A DNA stretch of 40,113 nt from Erysipelotrichia bacterium (GTDB lineage: Bacteria > Bacillota_I > Bacilli_A > Erysipelotrichales > Erysipelotrichaceae), in NCBI GenBank assembly GCA_018333955.1, contig JAGXSD010000057.1:1-40113 (forward strand), in the 5' to 3' direction. This document shows positions 1 through 39,956 of this stretch, one piece after another (positions within the stretch are counted from its first letter, which is position 1; every line of letters starts with the position of its first letter). The position numbers and the translations under genes were made by a program. The notes below the pieces were generated by a model. It saw only the letters and a list, made by a program, of their open reading frames with translations, did no database searches and had not been told where the DNA came from.

Positions 1-306
1 CATTCAAAGTTCTACAGTTTAGTCATATCGCTATTAATCACCTCTTAAGGACATGACAAGCAAGAGATGATTGACTCAATGGGATTGTCGGGAACACGCG
101 GTGAGTCGCCTTATGAACCTTATTCTTTGTTTGTGATACACGTTTATAAGCCAAAGACCAACCTATAAGGTGCACGCTGATAGCAGTATTTAGCTAATTA
201 AGCAGCGAAAGAAAGTCTGTTTCCAGATATTTTTTGTTGGCTTTTAAGGTAGCCACACCACTGCCCTTTGAATCAAACATCGACCTGTCGAAACCATGAC
301 ATCCCC
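1..306 (-). ncRNA. ssrA: tmRNA (ssrA), 5' part, runs off the window
   Basis: Transfer-messenger RNA rescues stalled ribosomes together with SmpB and tags the unfinished protein for degradation. Read on the minus strand, the sequence starts at 306 with GGGGATGTCATGGTTTCGAC, the hallmark 5' end that forms the tRNA-like acceptor and D-like region. The tag reading frame ends at about 204-230 with codons for L-S-F-A-A followed by TAA, like the -ALAA ends of known tags. The resume codon is not certain; the open frame upstream reads K-S-Q-Q-K-I-S-G-N-R. About 300 nt are present, so the 3' tRNA-like half lies outside the window. The partner gene smpB is 3 kb away on the same strand, with a plus-strand operon in between. 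Confidence 0.93.
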
Positions 307-15728: not shown

Positions 15729-15762
15729 AAAAAGACTATCCCTCTAAAAAGAGGCGATAGTC
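15729..15762 (-). terminator. T-box terminator
   Basis: On the minus strand AGACTATCGCCTCT and AGAGGGATAGTCT pair around TTTT and are followed by TTTTTTATTT. The upstream arm overlaps the T-box sequence region, as expected for a terminator/antiterminator switch. Confidence 0.88.
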
Positions 15763-15978
15763 TCGCGGTTCCACTCTTGTTTGACCAATATTAACTATTG
15801 ATCCTCACTCGGATACATTCATATCCTAACGCTATAACAGGCGTACCTGCACCCCTCTACATTTTCGAAGGGTTTGCTCCAAGATGCATTCGCAGTGCTT
15901 TCACTAAAGATTCTTTCACCAATTGAATCTCTCTCTAATAGCTTCACCACTGTTACTATTTCTTATCAGTGCATTTCA
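15735..15978 (-). promoter_or_regulatory. T-box riboswitch, apparent specifier UGC (cysteine)
   Basis: This leader RNA senses uncharged tRNA. The T-box core AAGAGTGGAACCGCG (15765-15779) is nearly canonical. Stem I begins with the conserved GATAAGAAATAGTA (K-turn/AGUA region). The 3' side of stem I reads GCGAA-UGC-A-UCUUGGAGC, which aligns with the known glyQS element (GGC-A-UUCUUGAGC) and places UGC at 15886-15888 as specifier. Low charging of tRNA-Cys should therefore turn on the AbgT transporter and M24 peptidase. The specifier is read by eye and should be confirmed by folding. Confidence 0.88.
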
Positions 15979-30981: not shown

Positions 30982-31085
30982 TAAGTTCGACCTATCCTTC
31001 AAGGATTAGCACCTTCCATGGTATGGGGTTGCTGTGGAGTCATAGAGCTTGTCTCTCGTCCACTCGTGATAGTGATATACTCTAA
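30982..31085 (-). promoter_or_regulatory. SAM-I-clan riboswitch, short or missing P4
   Basis: On the minus strand the aptamer starts with CTATCACGAG (P1 5' strand), then P2 GTGGA...TCCAC enclosing the kink-turn-like CTCTATGA. It continues with CAGCAACC, a P3 closed by GGTGCTAATCC, and the P1 3' strand GATAG in GAAGGATAGG. GCAACC and GGTGCTAAT are the conserved SAM-I core. Between the core and P1 only a few bases remain, so the P4 hairpin is missing or tiny, as in SAM-I/IV-variant RNAs. It controls the minus-strand genes of unknown function starting at 30892. Confidence 0.8.
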
Positions 31086-31282: not shown

Positions 31283-33187
31283 ATGCTCCAATTTAAAATA
31301 AAATTTATACAAATGAACAATTCAAATAAAGACTTTCAAAAATTAATGGAAGAGCTCAAAGTGGCGATACTTTATAGTCTCGTGAAAAGTCATCCAAGAA
31401 GATTAGGATCAGATTATGTCAGAATTCTAATAATGCGAGGTTTCATTAATGTTGAGAAGAAAAATATCAACAAAATACTTTATGATAACAAACATATTTT
31501 TAATCCGAATCTAAATGAAAAAAAAGTGCCTGCTTGGACAATCATTGATGAAAACGAAAATAATAAAAATGCAAATCCTTCTAAGCACAATAAAATAGAT
31601 GAGGTCTTAAAGAAGGCTATATCTCTCAGCAAAATCAATGAAGTAATCGCCAACAAATGGATTAACAATGATTATAAAGGTACAGCAAATGTATATTTCA
31701 AAAAAACATCTAGAAGTTTGATTCTATACTTAGTACTCCAATCTTTACAGAAAGTAAAAGTAACATATATTTACTTTGAAAGAAAAGAAACGAGTATTGC
31801 TTTTGAGAAGTTATTCACACAGTTTGTTAAAGATAATGAACTTGATGTTGCTTTATTGAAGTTTCATGAAGTAAAAAAACTTAGTTCAAAGTTTGTTTGT
31901 ATACTCAATAACCTAAATGAAATTAGTAAAATCAAAGATAAAGAATTTTCCGGACTTATTTCCTTCACTTCTTCAAGAAACAATTATGATTTGTCGAAAT
32001 TCAAATCCTATTTGCACATTAAACAATTGAGTTTCACACTTGATACTTCTGATACAGATGATGATTTGATCTTTGAGTACCAATTTATTGATTATTTGAA
32101 AGATGAAAACAAATACTCGTTTAATTGTCTTTTCTTCGATTACTCGAAAATTGAAAGAAAAGACTACTCGGTAACCTGTATTAACTTAATTGAAATGGGT
32201 TGTATAAAAAGTAATACGGATTGGTTCGACTTTTGGCTAGAAATTGAAAATGAAGAAAAGAGAAATTTAAAGACAAACCGAGCTTTGACTTACTATAAAA
32301 ATCAGTATACTAAGATAATTAATAACCAGATAAAGTTTGATTTTCTAATTAATTACTTATCAAAGAATAAAATAGCCGATCAAATCCTTATATATAATGA
32401 AAGTGCAGTTCAAGTCTTACTATTAATTGATGAGTTAGTTTCTTTAGGTCTGAACTATGAACTCTTTTCTAAAAAGGAGGATTTACAAGCTTATCATCTA
32501 AATGGTAATATAAATTCCCTTATTACAATCATTGATGAATCTGTAATTGAATCTAAAATAACTATTCAACCAACAGAGAATATCTTTGTATTTGGTATGT
32601 TAGGTAGTTCTAAAAAACTAATGACGTTGATTTCATTTTTAGACAATAATCCTAATCAAAAGCAAGCAAATATTAATCTACTCCTCACGAATAACACTTT
32701 TGATGATTTTAGAATTTATCCTCAATCATACAATTCATTAAGAGACCTGTTACTATCAAATTATGAAAAGCAAGATAATAGTTCAACGACTGAGAAAGAA
32801 ATAAATGAAAATGACTATTCCACTAGATATTCTAATGAACTAATGATAATTGGTTCTATATCAAACCTTAGTGATAAACATTATCAATTGCTTAGGAAAT
32901 CTTTACATTCAAATATCAAGAATATTGTTTTCTTAAATGTTGATAAATTAGAATTTGCTGAAATTATTAATGAGATATTTAACTTGAACTCAAAGTATAT
33001 TTACTTCCAACATGATTTTTCTGATACAGAAATCAATCATCTTGGCTCAAAACTTTTCTATGAACAAAATCAACGTTATATTCGACTTGAAAAGTCAAGA
33101 TCATTTTCGATTGCACATATTCTCTCGTTTATTGTCGAAATAAGCAATCAATTTAAGGAAACTCATGAAGTTAATAATAAGTCGTAA
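31283..33187 (+). CDS. degenerate SF2-helicase-like protein, first gene of putative defence operon
   Basis: 634 residues, no recognised family. Residues about 10-75 look like a winged-helix region (LVKSHPRRLGSDYVRILIMRG). At about 124-155 the stretch IANKWINNDYKGTANVYFKK fits the pattern found at motif I of DEAD/DEAH helicases (W-x-x-x-x-K-G-x-x), but the Walker A Gly-Lys-Thr is replaced by FKKTS. A DExH box is not visible either. A second Rossmann-like half (about 360-480, with QILIYNESAVQVLLLIDELV) resembles a helicase C-terminal domain. It may be an inactive scaffold or DNA-binding partner (inference). An alternative start is ATG 31313; neither start has a good site. It overlaps the next gene by 23 nt. 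Confidence 0.75.
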   Translation: MLQFKIKFIQMNNSNKDFQKLMEELKVAILYSLVKSHPRRLGSDYVRILIMRGFINVEKKNINKILYDNKHIFNPNLNEKKVPAWTIIDENENNKNANPSKHNKIDEVLKKAISLSKINEVIANKWINNDYKGTANVYFKKTSRSLILYLVLQSLQKVKVTYIYFERKETSIAFEKLFTQFVKDNELDVALLKFHEVKKLSSKFVCILNNLNEISKIKDKEFSGLISFTSSRNNYDLSKFKSYLHIKQLSFTLDTSDTDDDLIFEYQFIDYLKDENKYSFNCLFFDYSKIERKDYSVTCINLIEMGCIKSNTDWFDFWLEIENEEKRNLKTNRALTYYKNQYTKIINNQIKFDFLINYLSKNKIADQILIYNESAVQVLLLIDELVSLGLNYELFSKKEDLQAYHLNGNINSLITIIDESVIESKITIQPTENIFVFGMLGSSKKLMTLISFLDNNPNQKQANINLLLTNNTFDDFRIYPQSYNSLRDLLLSNYEKQDNSSTTEKEINENDYSTRYSNELMIIGSISNLSDKHYQLLRKSLHSNIKNIVFLNVDKLEFAEIINEIFNLNSKYIYFQHDFSDTEINHLGSKLFYEQNQRYIRLEKSRSFSIAHILSFIVEISNQFKETHEVNNKS

Positions 33188-35438
33188 TTTCGAAAAAAAG
33201 TTAAAGAAGTTCAATCAATCCCAAGATAATTGGTATGATTTTTTTAATGAACTTTCAAAACTTACATTTCATGATATTTATAATCAAAAGAAATATGGTG
33301 TAAAAAAATACAAAGGCAATAGTGACATTCCAATCTATGGAATAGATTTCAATATCAGGAGTGCAGAAAGAATCATCGCTACTGTTCTTGGTCAATATAC
33401 AAAAGAAAAACAAGAACAGTTTAAAGTTAAAACTGGCTTAGAAACAGTTGATGTCTTAATTTTGCATGATATATCTGAACACGATTCTCAAAATGATTCG
33501 GTTTTAAACATAAGTAAAAATGATTTGAATATAGACGATCTACTGCCCTTTATCAGTAATTCTGTCCAACTTAATGATTTATATTCTTATTTGACAGGAA
33601 GAAAAATATCAAAAATACTTAGCGAAGACAAGAATGAAATTGTTCGAACCTTTGTCACTAGCAACACAGCACCAACAATACTTCAAGGCATTGCTGGAAG
33701 TGGTAAAACTGAAGTATTAAAAGGGATTTTATCAGAATGGAATATTCATTATCCAGATAGTAAAATTTTATTTCTAACTTCCTCAATGAGGTTAATTGAA
33801 GAAATAATTAGAGAAATGAATCTTAATAATCCAAATATTGATATAACCACTCTTGCTTCATTGATAAACAATCTGAATAATCAAACGCGAACTCCTCTAT
33901 CTTTACCTCAATTTAAAGCATTTTTAAGTAATGGTTCAATTAATGATTACAATATTTCAAATAGTATTATCAATATTTCAAATAAACACGGAATCAAAAA
34001 AGTGTTTGCTGAAATCACTGCAGTTATTTTTGGGAAAGCAAATCCTTCGATAAATGATGTTTTATCTAGAAACGAATATTCAAATAGCATTAATCAATCA
34101 AGTATTGATCTTAATGAAAAAGAAAAAGAAGTGATCTTCAACATTGCATATTTATTTATCAAATATTACGAAAAATCATATATGGAGCTTAGTTATGAAT
34201 GTAATAAACTTCTTAAAAAAGGAACTAGTACATATGATTTAGTTCTAGTTGATGAAGTACAAGATTATACAGAAATACAGTTCATGTTTATTTATAGTTT
34301 AGTTAAGAATAAACAGAATATTTTCATCTCAGGTGACATAAATCAAACAATTAATCCTACATTGTTTAAATTCGGAAATATAACAAAATTATTACATCAT
34401 AAAGGGAAAAACTGGATACCGGCAGGACCATTAATTAGCAACTATCGAAATTCATCTGAAGTAACTCAACTTATTAATATCTTGAATGAACTAAGAAATG
34501 AGAAACTTCCGACAAGAAAACAAATTCACAGTCAAAACGAGCATAACATGAGCCATGAAAATGGAAGGATTTACTTATATTATGGTGATGTAAATGAAGA
34601 TAATCCACTTTTCAGCAATTCTAAACTTAATATCATAAAGTCTGAACTTTCAAATTTCAATCCCAATATTTCTTTAACAGTGCATGATATAAAAGGTCTA
34701 GAATTTGAATACGTCGCAACGATAGATATAATATCTGATTACTGCGATCTGCTAGATGAGATTTTTGAGGAATCATATAAAAAGAATGAATCAATGCATT
34801 ATTTCTTCAATTTGTTTTATGTTGCAATAAGTCGTGTAATGAAAAACTTAGTTATTATTGAATCTAAACCAAGTAAACTACTCGATTATATTAGGTCTAA
34901 ACTTAACCAAGCTTTTATTCTTACAGAAGTAACATCATTAGAAAAGATTGATATTGAAGGGGAAGAATCACTTGATAATCTATTCTATAACGGTATAGAA
35001 TCAATCAAGACGCAACACTTCCAAGTGGCTAGGAGAAACTTTAGTCTTATTAAAAACAGGTTTGAAAAATATCCTCACGTTGAAGATTTATTAGTTTTCA
35101 TTAATATGTGTGAGGAAAACCAACCTTACGTGAATATTGCTGATTACTGCTTTACTTGTGGTTTATACAATCTTGCATCAATTTATTATAAACAAGCAAA
35201 TAAAAAGATTGAGCAATGTATCATGGTCTTCCTTCAAGATCAAAATCATGAACTTGAAATACTACTCGAAACATATCAATTAGATTTCATTGATTTATCA
35301 TATTGTGGATCATTGCCTGCTTGGATAAGCGATCTAGTTGAACTAGCTTTAGAAGAACAATTAGATTTAGTACAACTAAATTTTGAAGACATTGACTTAA
35401 AAATACTGTCATTGAAGGAGGTAAACAATGGAAGGTAA
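33165..35438 (+). CDS. SF1 (UvrD-like) helicase with N-terminal RelE-like domain
   Basis: 757 residues. Residues 1-105 resemble a RelE/ParE-type toxin fold (ISRNFEKKLKKF, then IYGIDFNIRSAERIIATV and VDVLILHDISEHD). The helicase core has Walker A GIAGSGKT (about 175-182), Walker B LVDEVQD (about 361-367), a GDINQTINP motif III-like stretch, SNYRNS (about 424), VHDIKGLEFE (motif V region, about 505) and FYVAISR (motif VI, about 551). From about 600 on, TPR-like helices follow; no nuclease domain is seen. AAGGA precedes the ATG. Middle gene of a coupled three-gene operon. Anti-phage defence is a reasonable but unproven role. Confidence 0.85.
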   Translation: MKLIISRNFEKKLKKFNQSQDNWYDFFNELSKLTFHDIYNQKKYGVKKYKGNSDIPIYGIDFNIRSAERIIATVLGQYTKEKQEQFKVKTGLETVDVLILHDISEHDSQNDSVLNISKNDLNIDDLLPFISNSVQLNDLYSYLTGRKISKILSEDKNEIVRTFVTSNTAPTILQGIAGSGKTEVLKGILSEWNIHYPDSKILFLTSSMRLIEEIIREMNLNNPNIDITTLASLINNLNNQTRTPLSLPQFKAFLSNGSINDYNISNSIINISNKHGIKKVFAEITAVIFGKANPSINDVLSRNEYSNSINQSSIDLNEKEKEVIFNIAYLFIKYYEKSYMELSYECNKLLKKGTSTYDLVLVDEVQDYTEIQFMFIYSLVKNKQNIFISGDINQTINPTLFKFGNITKLLHHKGKNWIPAGPLISNYRNSSEVTQLINILNELRNEKLPTRKQIHSQNEHNMSHENGRIYLYYGDVNEDNPLFSNSKLNIIKSELSNFNPNISLTVHDIKGLEFEYVATIDIISDYCDLLDEIFEESYKKNESMHYFFNLFYVAISRVMKNLVIIESKPSKLLDYIRSKLNQAFILTEVTSLEKIDIEGEESLDNLFYNGIESIKTQHFQVARRNFSLIKNRFEKYPHVEDLLVFINMCEENQPYVNIADYCFTCGLYNLASIYYKQANKKIEQCIMVFLQDQNHELEILLETYQLDFIDLSYCGSLPAWISDLVELALEEQLDLVQLNFEDIDLKILSLKEVNNGR

Positions 35439-35742
35439 AAGTAAAGTTATTGAGAAATTAATACAAAGTCAAAATGCAACAATTGAAGATTTAAGTAAAC
35501 TCGCAAATTCTTTTGAGAAACTTAACACAACAATCAACAGTCTCAAGGATTCTATTATTAGTGAAGATATATTGAGTTCAATAGTTGAAAAGTTATCCAA
35601 GCTTGAAGAAATCAGTATGAAAATTAACGAAATTGAAGAAAGGATGAGGATTCTTGATACCATCAGAGAAAGCATCGATAGAGTTGAAGATATAAGTGAG
35701 AAATTGACACAACCCATCGAATCTGCAAATTCAAAGGAATAA
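35428..35742 (+). CDS. small coiled-coil protein of the helicase operon
   Basis: 104 residues, almost entirely heptad-like and charged (IEKLIQSQNATIEDLSKLA; KLEEISMKINEIEERMRIL). No family recognised. AAGGAGG lies 6 nt before the ATG, and the gene overlaps the helicase gene by 11 nt, so it is a real third member of the operon. Its length and coiled-coil form suggest an oligomerisation or adaptor subunit, or an antitoxin for the RelE-like domain (inference). Confidence 0.75.
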   Translation: MEGKSKVIEKLIQSQNATIEDLSKLANSFEKLNTTINSLKDSIISEDILSSIVEKLSKLEEISMKINEIEERMRILDTIRESIDRVEDISEKLTQPIESANSKE

Positions 35743-35754
35743 GTTGATGAGTTT

Positions 35755-36753
35755 TCAAAGTTCACTTTGCACTACATATATTGAGAAATCTCTACCTGAT
35801 AGAAATTTCAAGTAAGTAATATCTTCTTTCCACTTTTCAATTGCTTTTCTATTATCTTTGCTTCTAATAGCTCTTTTATTGCTAATTTGATTATTGATAA
35901 AATGAATCATGTGATTTATGTTAGATTTTGAAATACTAACTATTCCGTTTATTATTTCTTTCCTTTGTCTATGTGATAAATTGTCATTTGCATTTACAGT
36001 ATACTTAAGTTTCCTAAAGTATGATTCCTCTGGCATATTACTATAATCACTTGTTGAAACATTTTCATAAGTAATATTTAAAAGCAAAGTGCCTCTATGA
36101 TTAATACTATTAAATTCTTCAATGTGCGTGAAGTATTTCTTACACGTAGAACAATAAAAAGCATCAAGCTTATCCACTTCAACATGATCATTACTTAATA
36201 GTCTGATGAAATTAATAATTCCTGACCGCGTGTTGTGTTTTCTGCATCCTGTGAGCCCTACATAAACTGTTAATTCAAACTTAACATTGTTGTGTTTGGC
36301 TATATTATGGATTTTACCTATATAAGCAGAAACAGGCAGTTCCAACAGTTCTTCTTTGATTGTTTGTTTTTTCTTTTCTCTTAAGATTTCTACACAGCAA
36401 ATTAGATAATCTTTTTTTATTGATTTAAACTCAGTTATTTTATAACTTTTGTTAGATATTTGAACCGATTGCTCACTTTTAATAAGAAAATCTAAAAAAT
36501 CAGACATACTATAATAATCAGAATACCAGGAATCTTGATTCATCCTGTGAATCAACTTAAAATTATACATTTTATTTTGTGTATACTTTAAAACCTCAAA
36601 AGTTGATTCAAGGTAATGCGATAAATTATCATAAGCCAAGAAGGTCTCATAATATAATAATGACTCTAGAATAAAGTCATCTGACATATTTCCTAATTCA
36701 TATACGAGATTATCATCTAAATGCTCACCTATAGAATTGAGGAATATCTTCAC
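35755..36753 (-). CDS. C-terminal part of a frameshifted gene
   Basis: 332 codons from a GTG without a ribosome binding site. The same frame stays open upstream to about 36831 and reads DAIYDPLSKVSYVFLNDPYN before this point, so this is not a true start. Features: possible zinc ligands GCRKHNTRSG and YCSTCKKYF (about 168-212), otherwise helical. No family recognised. It converges on the coiled-coil gene with a 12-nt gap and no terminator. With the preceding fragment the intact protein would have about 488 residues. Confidence 0.65.
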   Translation of the reverse strand: MKIFLNSIGEHLDDNLVYELGNMSDDFILESLLYYETFLAYDNLSHYLESTFEVLKYTQNKMYNFKLIHRMNQDSWYSDYYSMSDFLDFLIKSEQSVQISNKSYKITEFKSIKKDYLICCVEILREKKKQTIKEELLELPVSAYIGKIHNIAKHNNVKFELTVYVGLTGCRKHNTRSGIINFIRLLSNDHVEVDKLDAFYCSTCKKYFTHIEEFNSINHRGTLLLNITYENVSTSDYSNMPEESYFRKLKYTVNANDNLSHRQRKEIINGIVSISKSNINHMIHFINNQISNKRAIRSKDNRKAIEKWKEDITYLKFLSGRDFSIYVVQSEL

Positions 36754-36785: not shown

Positions 36786-37220
36786 TTAAAAAAACATAAG
36801 ATACTTTGGATAGAGGATCATAAATAGCATCCTAACCCCACTGCTAGATTGATTAAAAAGTGATCTAATCAACCTAAGATCATCTGATTCTTCAGCTAGT
36901 TTGCACATTTTCTCAATCTCAGATAGTACTGTATTAGCTCTCAAATTGCATTCATTGTCCGATATCTTCATGCTTCCAACATAATAATGTGATGAATTAT
37001 TATCATAATTTATCCCAAAAGAAATCTTCCCTTTTATCAAACTTAAGGTATTATTCAATTCTGATAAAGTGTCAATTAGAATAAAATAATCACTATCTTC
37101 AATATTACATCCGAAAAAATTAAACACTAAGTGATCTTGATCTAATTCTAATAGCGAACTAGCATTAAAATTAACCCTAATCTTGTGTATCACTTCTAAA
37201 AATTTCAAACTCTTTTTCAT
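36786..37220 (-). CDS. N-terminal part of a frameshifted gene
   Basis: 144 codons; GAGGGGGG before the ATG is a strong site. Residues 1-130 look like normal protein (KFLEVIHKIRVNFNASSLLE ... SSSGVR). The last 14 (MLFMILYPKY...) are probably out of frame, because the -1 frame from 36831 on continues into the downstream fragment with sensible sequence. Adding one base near 36831 (for example G in TTAGGATG) joins them as SSGVR-D-AIYDPLSKV. It lies downstream of the darG-like gene and could belong to the same defence unit. Confidence 0.65.
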   Translation of the reverse strand: MKKSLKFLEVIHKIRVNFNASSLLELDQDHLVFNFFGCNIEDSDYFILIDTLSELNNTLSLIKGKISFGINYDNNSSHYYVGSMKISDNECNLRANTVLSEIEKMCKLAEESDDLRLIRSLFNQSSSGVRMLFMILYPKYLMFF

Positions 37221-37315: not shown

Positions 37316-38005
37316 TTAACTTAAATCGAACTCTATCTCTATATACTCGTCATCATGATTTTCATTGAAAAAATATCTGAATAAATTCTCATATGATTTT
37401 GCCCCAATAGAATTTACACTTAGCAATTCTCTAAATCGGGTGATTGGTCTACTGTCATTTAGCTTCATAATTTGCTTTTTAGTTAGATTGATTTTTTTGC
37501 ATGTGTTTTCTAGATTAATTTTATTAAATGCGGTTACCATATCTAATTCTTTACCACTTGCTTTTTTATCCTCGTCTAAACAAATAATAACCTCCAATTC
37601 AATATCATTTAAATACATCTCCATTAATCTTTTTACATCTATCCAATCCAACTCACCGTTGCCCACCCCTAATTTGGGAAAGGCAACTCTATTGATATTT
37701 AATGTTTTGTAGGTATCTAGAAAATCAATCAATCCATATTCTATCCATTTTAATTCTGACGGGTAACGAAAATCATATTTCGTCGGAAAATTAACAATTA
37801 TTTCTTGATTAGTAGACCAATAATCAACTTTTCCGAGTTTAATAAACTTTTTAAGGCATTTTTCTTTATATTCTTCAAACATCTCAGGATATCTTAACTT
37901 ATACTCAAGTGCTATACCTGCTCCCATCACCCCTAAGCAATTTACGGTATTTACTCTTGCATCACATTCAACATTAAATACTGTACCCGTTGAATATTTA
38001 ATCAT
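37316..38005 (-). CDS. darG: DarG-like macrodomain protein, putative antitoxin
   Basis: 229 residues. Residues 1-150 form a macrodomain of the DarG type: VNTVNCLGVMGAGIALEYKL (ADP-ribose binding), VNFPTKYDFRYPSE, and FPKLGVGNGELDWIDV. DarG enzymes remove ADP-ribose from DNA bases and so neutralise DarT. The C-terminal 80 residues are helical and differ from the longer domain of classical DarG. The gene overlaps the end of the darT-like gene by 8 nt, so both proteins are made together. Confidence 0.87.
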   Translation of the reverse strand: MIKYSTGTVFNVECDARVNTVNCLGVMGAGIALEYKLRYPEMFEEYKEKCLKKFIKLGKVDYWSTNQEIIVNFPTKYDFRYPSELKWIEYGLIDFLDTYKTLNINRVAFPKLGVGNGELDWIDVKRLMEMYLNDIELEVIICLDEDKKASGKELDMVTAFNKINLENTCKKINLTKKQIMKLNDSRPITRFRELLSVNSIGAKSYENLFRYFFNENHDDEYIEIEFDLS

Positions 38006-39956
38006 TGTCTTTCCTCCAAATCAACCATTTAATTTTCTCTATTTCAATTTCAATTGAGTATATCTTCTCGAATATATCAATATCAATCCTACCATAAAAA
38101 TCAAACTTTTCCATAGATTCGGGAATTGGTTGCATTGAAACTAATGAGTTATTGTTATTTTGTCTAATGTTTTCTGTCAAGCAAATACCTGAAGCAAATG
38201 TAATTAAAATATTATGATTAAAATCTTCTAAAAAACGATAAAACATTAAGCCAACAAAAGCACTGTCCTTTTTTACTTCAATTTTAAAGTCGTAAAGATA
38301 GTCACAATCCACTCGATTATTGAATGAACTATTATCAACAATAGAAGTTATTTGCAAACTTGCATCTTTTATGAGTTCAAACATCTTTAACTCTGCGGGG
38401 GATCTAAATATTAGTTTGTTCATTTTATCGATAGAAACACTATCATAAATTAAGAACTCAGAATTCTTCTTACTAGTCAATAGTCTACCATCATTAATAT
38501 TAAAAACTTCAGTTAAATCGTTATTCCCGTTAGGGACAGGACCTTTATAAAATATTAGCTCCCAAGGGAAATTTAACGCAACTTGAGCTGATTTCGTCGA
38601 TCTAGATCTTGAGTTTGCAGCACCACCATTATAGAAAAGCTTATTTGGATGATAGATTAGAGATTCATCGAAAATGAGCAACACTGGTATTGGCATATGA
38701 GGTTCATCCATAGTCTTTTTAACACCTTCATTGGCATAAAGAGTTGGTGTTTTGTCTCTGTAGAAAAAACGAACACTGTTTAAAATAACATCTGGTGTAT
38801 TCCTAATGATTTCCTTGTCTGCTGCATCAACAACGATATATCTCTTGGCATTATGCCTTGAAAACAATTTTTTATGAAAAAATATCGAGTTCAAATTCAA
38901 AATGTCAGTACAATGAATAAAACCTCGAAATGAATAATTGCTTTTAAGTGTATTTAAAAGCAAATCTTCATAATAATATTTCTTACTGTTAAATCTTAGT
39001 TCCTGTGATTCATTTAAATAGACTGCGAAACTATTTAGATCACTATGTTCGCCATCACGAATATAACTCCAAAACAGTTGAATCTCATCATTAGTTAACC
39101 ATGTATTCTCTAACCCAAATTTATCTGATTCAAATATTGATTTGATCGGTGTAGAGTTCATTGTGGAAAGTTTCTTTACCAGAAAAGAAACATTTAAATC
39201 TCCCGAATCATATTCATTTTGTTCAAATTGAATAAAATAACCATTTCTATTCGTTGTTTCCTTTAATAACTGTAATATTCTGATGTTTTCGGTGAAACTC
39301 GTGCACTTACTATTAAACAATTCATAATTATCATTCACAAGAAAATCTATCAATGCCTCTGATATCTCATGCCAATAGTTAAACAAATAGTGATAATAAA
39401 TAAAGCTCATGTTATATTCATTTACATCTTTAAGCATTTCGTAAAACACACCATCAAATAATTGGCTAGTTTTGAGTTTCTCAATTTTGCTTGATAATCT
39501 TCTGTCTAGTACACATAGTAACATTATATGAGTGATAATTATCGTTGAAGTTTCAGTTTTACCTAAGTGTTTAAAATAATACTTTGTGATTTTTTCTAGC
39601 AGCTCTTCAAGTATATTTTCAGTTGCCAAAGAATTAATTGATTTATATAACCTTTTAATCAGATTTATAGAACCAAATGCTACCTCTATTTCAATAGTAT
39701 CATTCGACTCTAAACTCGCTATTCTCTCTAAAAAAACGTCAGCACTTTCTGCCCTTAGTAATTCTGAATTGATTCCTAGATTATGAGTTAAAGCATCTAA
39801 TTTCTCGTTTTCAGAATCAACAAAGAAATCACTAACAGATATAATTTGATTTTCAATGAAAAATTCAAGCAAATTAATAGAGTTTGTAACGTTATAATTA
39901 AAAGGCAAATTGTAAAATGAAGTCGTCCACCCAATAGAATAAAAGAAAAGCACCAT
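37998..39956 (-). CDS. darT: DarT-like DNA ADP-ribosyltransferase with long N-terminal extension
   Basis: 652 residues. The DarT (DUF4433) domain lies at about 340-520: GFIHCTDILNLNSIF with the NAD-binding His, a VRFFYRDKTPTLY strand, and the catalytic Glu at about 500 in KKNSEFLIYDSVSI. DarT enzymes modify thymidine or guanosine in single-stranded DNA and act in phage defence. Known DarTs are about 200-230 residues, so the 340-residue helical N-terminus and 130-residue C-terminus are extra. The start ATG has no ribosome binding site and lies next to an IS30-type transposase gene, so the true N-terminus was probably lost. Confidence 0.83.
   Translation of the reverse strand: MVLFFYSIGWTTSFYNLPFNYNVTNSINLLEFFIENQIISVSDFFVDSENEKLDALTHNLGINSELLRAESADVFLERIASLESNDTIEIEVAFGSINLIKRLYKSINSLATENILEELLEKITKYYFKHLGKTETSTIIITHIMLLCVLDRRLSSKIEKLKTSQLFDGVFYEMLKDVNEYNMSFIYYHYLFNYWHEISEALIDFLVNDNYELFNSKCTSFTENIRILQLLKETTNRNGYFIQFEQNEYDSGDLNVSFLVKKLSTMNSTPIKSIFESDKFGLENTWLTNDEIQLFWSYIRDGEHSDLNSFAVYLNESQELRFNSKKYYYEDLLLNTLKSNYSFRGFIHCTDILNLNSIFFHKKLFSRHNAKRYIVVDAADKEIIRNTPDVILNSVRFFYRDKTPTLYANEGVKKTMDEPHMPIPVLLIFDESLIYHPNKLFYNGGAANSRSRSTKSAQVALNFPWELIFYKGPVPNGNNDLTEVFNINDGRLLTSKKNSEFLIYDSVSIDKMNKLIFRSPAELKMFELIKDASLQITSIVDNSSFNNRVDCDYLYDFKIEVKKDSAFVGLMFYRFLEDFNHNILITFASGICLTENIRQNNNNSLVSMQPIPESMEKFDFYGRIDIDIFEKIYSIEIEIEKIKWLIWRKDND

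What the first reader, a model, noticed from the sequence alone, without database searches (positions are those of the whole stretch)
31283..35742. Three-gene operon: Walker-less SF2-like protein, RelE-like/SF1 helicase fusion, coiled-coil protein
The three plus-strand genes overlap by 23 and 11 nt and the second and third have strong ribosome binding sites, so they are one functional unit. The first protein keeps the outline of an SF2 helicase but lacks the ATP-binding lysine; the second joins a RelE/ParE-like fold to an active-looking SF1 helicase and TPR-like tail; the third is a small coiled coil. It sits in an AT-rich island next to a DarTG-type system and an IS element, as defence systems often do. 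I do not recognise this combination among named systems.
Basis: partly seen in the sequence, partly recalled or inferred. Interest (0 to 1): 0.78.

Follow-up and report, generated by a model that had tools for sequence, protein, structure and literature searches.

The report
RelE-helicase with coiled-coil partner, plus orphan
Genes two and three of this operon form a widespread but apparently unnamed bacterial pair, a DNA-unwinding enzyme with a RelE-like domain at its front and a small coiled-coil partner, probably used against phages, while the first gene has no detectable relative and cannot be called a dead helicase.

Summary
The three ORFs are real, overlap by 23 and 11 nt, and lie in a low-GC island. 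[quoted passage not shown] sequence profiles and a model support this. It belongs to a broad family: 42 of 46 homologues of similar size are followed directly by a small coiled-coil gene like gene 3 (7 of 314 background genes; 2 of 36 longer homologues). Genes 2 and 3 are therefore a conserved pair. Gene 1 is not part of that conserved unit: no relative was found in plasmids, phages, IMG/VR, GTDB contigs (pattern scan) or about 560 genomes searched by alignment, nor beside any gene-2 homologue. The "dead SF2" label has no support, since profile scores equal shuffled controls. Function is inferred: probably counter-invader, because the nearest described protein, ArmD of ARMADA type II, has the same domain layout and is required for phage defence. 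Homologues at fixed chromosomal sites (all 5 Turicibacter species carry one) leave a genome-maintenance role open. It is not ARMADA or Gabija, as their partner genes are absent. DarT/DarG relatives next door are confirmed; no adjacent IS was found. Verdict: new variant of a known kind.

The parts
31283..33187 (+). gene 1, 634 aa, orphan protein of unknown fold, translationally overlapping gene 2
   Evidence: no relatives; no family; AF2 pLDDT 37
33165..35438 (+). gene 2, 757 aa: RelE/ParE-like domain (about 1-108), SF1A UvrD-type helicase (about 150-575), helical repeats (about 600-712), long C-terminal helix (719-756)
33165..33488 (+). part of gene 2 encoding the RelE-like N-terminal domain (residues 1-108) with invariant R69 and H106
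   Evidence: secondary structure
35428..35742 (+). gene 3, 104 aa, small coiled-coil partner
   Evidence: phmmer to the downstream gene of Elusimicrobia homologues E 5e-5; conserved position in 42 of 46 short homologues
37316..38005 (-). DarG-like macro-domain protein (neighbouring system, not part of the unit)
   Evidence: PF01661 2e-10; PADLOC DarG 8e-51
37998..39956 (-). DarT-like ADP-ribosyltransferase in residues 348-529 of a 652-aa protein (neighbouring system)
   Evidence: PF14487 1.8e-11; PADLOC DarT 3.6e-7
30989..31075 (-). SAM riboswitch just left of the GC drop; marks the native side of the island border
   Evidence: RF00162, 61.5 bits; terminator-like hairpin at 30983-30958

Best explanation
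[quoted passage not shown] Most likely it acts against invading DNA. The helicase would engage ssDNA or DNA-RNA intermediates of the invader. ATP-driven movement or a stalled state would deploy the RelE-like domain on RNA (mRNA at the ribosome, or nascent transcript). The coiled-coil protein would dock on the long C-terminal helix and control assembly or restraint. Gene 1 is a lineage-specific addition, translationally linked to gene 2, possibly a sensor or regulator. Shown: architecture, intact helicase motifs, conserved pairing with a coiled-coil gene, the RelE relationship of the family's N-terminal domain. Inferred: defence role, RNA as target, docking site, any role of gene 1.
For: Helicase: AAA_19 2e-10, UvrD-helicase 4.5e-8; GajB 2e-20; AF2 model pLDDT 78.6, Foldseek best hits UvrD/PcrA/Rep, E 3.5e-13; Walker A, DExQ box, R428 and R557 invariant in 45 sequences. 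RelE-like domain: family profile finds RelE3 (3bpq) as best PDB hit, E 4.5e-4; one member matches Pfam ParE_like at 1.4e-5; R69 and H106 invariant in 26 of 26. Pairing: 42 of 46 short homologues have an adjacent coiled-coil gene against 7 of 314 background genes; gene 3 itself matches the partner genes of Elusimicrobia. Defence link: ArmD of ARMADA type II, a RelE-like + GajB-like UvrD helicase, is needed for phage defence and its Walker A lysine is essential (PMC12458937); low-GC island beside DarT/DarG relatives; absent from 59 relatives including 5 of the same genus; some homologues sit in defence-like contexts (HsdR-like and WYL-like neighbours at L054 by inspection; tandem dynamin-like GTPases in L044 and L053).
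Against: Homologues are present in all 5 Turicibacter species searched and lie between ordinary chromosomal genes in Elusimicrobia and others, which suggests vertical, maintenance-like roles in those lineages. Gene 2 is remote from them (best identity 31% in the helicase core, end branch 2.5). Gene 2 alone gives no Pfam RelE hit. Gene 1 has no evidence for any function.
Confidence: 0.5

Rival explanations
1. Genome-maintenance module: a UvrD/PcrA/HelD-like helicase that clears stalled RNA polymerase, ribosomes or R-loops, with the RelE-like domain as an RNA or ribosome-binding module and the coiled coil as an adaptor; here carried on a mobile island by chance.
For: All 5 Turicibacter species carry it, with the same flanking genes in the four regions read; Elusimicrobia homologues sit beside metG and ftsW/mrdB-like genes; two Clostridia loci appear to have a release-factor gene directly upstream (RF-1 domain in two flanking ORFs); HelD-RNA polymerase complexes are among the Foldseek matches.
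Against: Absent from 59 relatives of this genome; patchy over phyla; sits with DarT/DarG relatives; the described relative ArmD is a defence protein.
Confidence: 0.27
2. Toxin-antitoxin-like unit: the RelE-like domain is a toxin activated by the helicase, and gene 3 (or gene 1) is the antitoxin; maintenance of the island rather than phage defence is the main role.
For: RelE/YoeB-like invariant residues; small partner gene overlapping or abutting the large one in most homologues.
Against: Partner genes vary from about 100 to over 400 aa of plain coiled coil, and gene 3 has no DNA-binding antitoxin domain; long homologues exist mostly without any partner (2 of 36 have one), so a partner is not obligatory for survival.
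Confidence: 0.13
3. One reading: a three-component system in which gene 1 is a catalytically dead SF2 helicase acting as an essential DNA-sensing subunit.
For: Gene 1 is translationally overlapped with gene 2 and lacks a Walker A motif; low-confidence secondary structure is alternating alpha/beta.
Against: No SF2 similarity in Pfam, PADLOC, NCBIfam or PDB sequence; hhalign to three SF2 profiles no better than shuffles; AF2 without alignment gives pLDDT 37; no counterpart of gene 1 by sequence in any homologous locus.
Confidence: 0.1

Closest known systems
ArmD of ARMADA type II (PMC12458937)
   Same: N-terminal RelE-like domain fused to a GajB-like UvrD helicase; similar spacing of Walker A and Walker B (K266/D454 in ArmD, K181/D363 here)
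   Different: ArmD works with ArmA (BrxHII-like), ArmB (PglX-like methylase) and ArmC (YprA-like), none of which was found here; no coiled-coil partner is described there; the ArmD sequence was not compared directly
GajB of Gabija
   Same: UvrD-like SF1 helicase, best PADLOC match (2e-20)
   Different: GajB, from general knowledge, lacks the RelE-like domain and pairs with the OLD nuclease GajA, absent here
RelE/YoeB/ParE toxins
   Same: N-terminal domain of gene 2: family profile matches RelE3; invariant Arg and His at YoeB-like positions
   Different: fused to a helicase; no cognate antitoxin of a known type; His-Asp where YoeB has His-Tyr
Elusimicrobia homologues L024-L028 (Ruminimicrobiellum and relatives)
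   Same: nearest full-length relatives of gene 2 (26-27% identity), followed by an overlapping coiled-coil gene to which gene 3 is similar
   Different: no gene 1; in L024, L025, L027 and L028 at one chromosomal site beside metG
UvrD/PcrA/Rep
   Same: SF1A core fold and motifs
   Different: RelE-like N-terminal extension and helical-repeat tail absent in UvrD

Membership tests
SF1A (UvrD-like) helicase | Walker A, DExQ box, conserved motif arginines, UvrD-like fold | tested here: met
RelE/ParE superfamily (gene 2 N-terminal domain) | sequence/profile similarity to RelE-type toxins | tested here: met
   for the family profile: RelE3, 4.5e-4; ParE_like in one member; gene 2 alone gives no Pfam hit
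RelE/ParE superfamily (gene 2 N-terminal domain) | BECR fold confirmed by structure comparison of the domain | tested here: inconclusive
   predicted strand/helix order fits; Foldseek on the whole chain lists helicases, the domain could not be submitted alone
RelE/ParE superfamily (gene 2 N-terminal domain) | RNase or gyrase-inhibiting toxicity | not testable with these tools
   needs an assay
ARMADA type II | ArmA, ArmB, ArmC homologues in the operon | tested here: not met
   none of the island ORFs matches such families
Gabija | GajA (OLD nuclease) next to GajB | tested here: not met
   genes 1 and 3 and neighbours have no such match
SF2 helicase (gene 1) | detectable similarity to SF2 profiles | tested here: not met
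SF2 helicase (gene 1) | two RecA-like domains in the structure | tested here: inconclusive
   model without alignment, pLDDT 37
RelE-helicase + coiled-coil two-gene module (defined here) | short RelE-SF1 helicase followed within 60 nt by a small coiled-coil gene | tested here: met
Named anti-phage system | demonstrated protection against phage | not testable with these tools
   needs plating assays

The most novel reading that the evidence does not exclude
The RelE-SF1 helicase plus coiled-coil pair is a stand-alone, undescribed two-component immune module spread over Bacillota, Elusimicrobiota, Mycoplasmatota and others, from which ARMADA recruited its ArmD subunit, and which picks up lineage-specific extra subunits such as gene 1 here or tandem dynamin-like GTPases in some Clostridia.
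Probability: 0.4. Interest if true: 0.65.

Novelty: new variant of a known kind. Interest (0 to 1): 0.48.

Why it matters
It identifies a conserved helicase and coiled-coil gene pair that the annotation libraries searched do not recognise, and ties it to the RelE-helicase subunit of a recently described defence system. If the pair works alone, it gives a minimal system in which to test how a RelE-like domain is controlled by an SF1 helicase.

Tried and rejected
Gene 1 relatives: tblastn of plasmids and phages, pattern scans of IMG/VR and GTDB contigs (15, 23), 247 class genomes (8), 16 genomes carrying gene-2 homologues (47), 299 genomes of the phylum of L033 (63), all ORFs beside gene-2 homologues (41). 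Three weak hits were set aside: two as chance, because one lies in a DnaX-like protein and one in an unrelated 308-aa ORF (68), and a 69-residue match at E 0.02 with an internal stop was not pursued (47). Gene 1 as SF2: rejected as unproven after hhalign against three SF2 sets with shuffle controls (95). One slightly raised score against the SF1 set (26 against a shuffle maximum of 23) was not pursued, since it is short and out of register. ArmD homology: a Pseudomonadota search gave no locus that I could assign to ARMADA, so a direct comparison with ArmD was not made. Gabija, ARMADA and a plain type II TA were considered and rejected as memberships.

Full report
OBSERVATION. The three + strand ORFs are as described: 31283-33187 (634 aa), 33165-35438 (757 aa), 35428-35742 (104 aa), overlapping by 23 and 11 nt. 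Genes 2 and 3 have good Shine-Dalgarno sequences (AAGGAA, AAGGAGG); gene 1 does not. A random 634-codon open frame at this composition has probability about 4e-26, and codon-position GC resembles the other island genes. GC falls to 27-31% from about 31.1 kb to the end of the contig at 40.1 kb, against 36-43% to the left. A SAM riboswitch on the minus strand at 30989-31075 marks the native side. The right border is not visible because the contig ends.

GENE 2, HELICASE. Pfam gives AAA_19 (2e-10) and UvrD-helicase (4.5e-8); PADLOC gives GajB (2e-20). With 45 homologues aligned, residues of Walker A (G175-K181), the DExQ box (D363, E364, Q366), D391/Q394, R428, K510/G511 and R557 are invariant. 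The AF2 model on that alignment has mean pLDDT 78.6, and Foldseek ranks UvrD, PcrA and Rep first (E down to 3.5e-13). The C-terminal third is helical pairs (603-712) followed by a long helix (719-756). The helicase is therefore probably active; this was not assayed.

GENE 2, RelE-LIKE DOMAIN. The N-terminal domain of the family (26 diverse sequences, alignment A4) has Arg69 and His106 in all sequences. A profile of it finds RelE3 (PDB 3bpq) as best solved structure at E 4.5e-4, the next hit being 0.27. One member matches Pfam ParE_like at 1.4e-5. The window protein alone gives no Pfam RelE hit, so the assignment rests on the family. A YoeB homologue from a related genome (L120) has Arg and His at what look like the same places (DRLIY ... 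RYHY against DRILF ... YxxHD). The automatic profile alignment covers the Arg region only (probability 40%), so the His match is by eye. From general knowledge these are the catalytic Arg65 and His83 of YoeB. RNase activity is thus plausible but unproved.

GENE 3 AND THE CONSERVED PAIR. A scan of GTDB species genomes with the gene-2 alignment gave 162 relatives, 80 kept. The best, full-length ones are Elusimicrobia (L024-L028). There the helicase gene is followed by an overlapping coiled-coil gene, and gene 3 matches those genes (phmmer 5e-5 to 2e-4; coiled coils inflate such scores, so position matters more). Over all loci, 42 of 46 helicases of 700-930 aa have a small coiled-coil ORF starting within 60 nt of their stop, against 7 of 314 other genes in the same loci and 2 of 36 longer family members (the coiled-coil score is a crude heptad count of my own). 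The pair is therefore a conserved module.

GENE 1. No relative was found in plasmids or phages by tblastn, in pattern scans of IMG/VR and GTDB contigs (these find close relatives only), in 247 genomes of the class, in 299 genomes of another phylum sample (its two weak hits are chance), in 16 genomes carrying gene-2 homologues, or among the ORFs beside gene-2 homologues. It has no Pfam, PADLOC, NCBIfam or convincing PDB sequence match. hhalign scores to three SF2 profiles lie within shuffled controls, and AF2 without an alignment gives pLDDT 37. Gene 1 lacks a G-K-[ST] motif, but the "SF2 outline" is not supported. A wrong fold has not been shown either; the question is open.

CONTEXT. The island also carries a DarT-like domain at the C-terminus of a 652-aa protein and a DarG-like macro protein, plus two minus-strand genes without family. 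Gene 2 is absent from 59 relatives including 5 of the same genus, some of them incomplete. Elsewhere the family has mixed surroundings. It is in all 5 Turicibacter species searched (the genus name is inferred from the Turicibacter titles of L051 and L068, which group with them) and, in the four read, between the same genes; in Elusimicrobia it is beside metG and ftsW-like genes. In L044 and L053 it is preceded by two dynamin-like GTPase genes and an unknown gene. PADLOC matches among 121 flanking ORFs are scattered, the most frequent (mad3) in 6, so no general defence-island association was shown.

TREE. The helicase core of gene 2 has a very long end branch (2.5 changes per column) and is nearest to the Elusimicrobia sequences by path, with unsure placement. 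It is a fast-evolving, remote member.

COMPARISON WITH KNOWN SYSTEMS. [quoted passage not shown] In E. [quoted passage not shown] The ARMADA partners are absent here, so this is not ARMADA. I did not compare the ArmD sequence itself, so common descent of the fusion is likely but untested. Gabija is excluded by the lack of GajA. The RelE/ParE toxin survey in mBio 2025 (PMC11980606) does not mention helicases. Text searches found no description of the pair with a coiled-coil gene; the library is open-access papers only.

MECHANISM. I favour a counter-invader role (about 0.5): the helicase engages invader DNA intermediates, the RelE-like domain attacks or binds RNA, the coiled coil controls assembly through the C-terminal helix, and gene 1 is an accessory sensor or regulator. 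A maintenance role near RNA polymerase, ribosomes or R-loops is the main rival (0.27), supported by fixed chromosomal positions in several lineages.

Noticed in passing
window 37998-39956 (-) and 37316-38005 (-): DarT-like toxin domain sits at the C-terminus of a 652-aa protein with about 345 extra N-terminal residues of no known family; the DarG-like partner is a 229-aa protein matching only the macro domain. The sizes differ from standard DarTG.
   Followed up: partly
L044:917-9435 and L053:1124-9613: Two Clostridia loci have an unknown gene, two dynamin-like GTPase genes, the RelE-helicase and a 396/444-aa coiled-coil gene in a row on one strand: a possible larger operon of unknown function.
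   Followed up: partly
L033:4273-11104: A helicase and coiled-coil pair is followed directly by a second large gene (1132 aa) and a second coiled-coil gene (166 aa): an apparent tandem.
   Followed up: no
L062:2436-3455 and L078:5080-6084: In a Clostridia group whose N-terminal domain no longer looks RelE-like, the gene directly upstream looks like a peptide chain release factor; two flanking ORFs of the set carry the RF-1 domain.
   Followed up: no
window 35755-36753 (-) and 36786-37220 (-): Two island genes without any family match (332 aa with a C-x2-C type motif, and 144 aa) between the operon and the DarG-like gene.
   Followed up: no
window 1-306 (-) and 15747-15978 (-): tmRNA gene cut by the window edge, and a T-box leader.
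   Followed up: no
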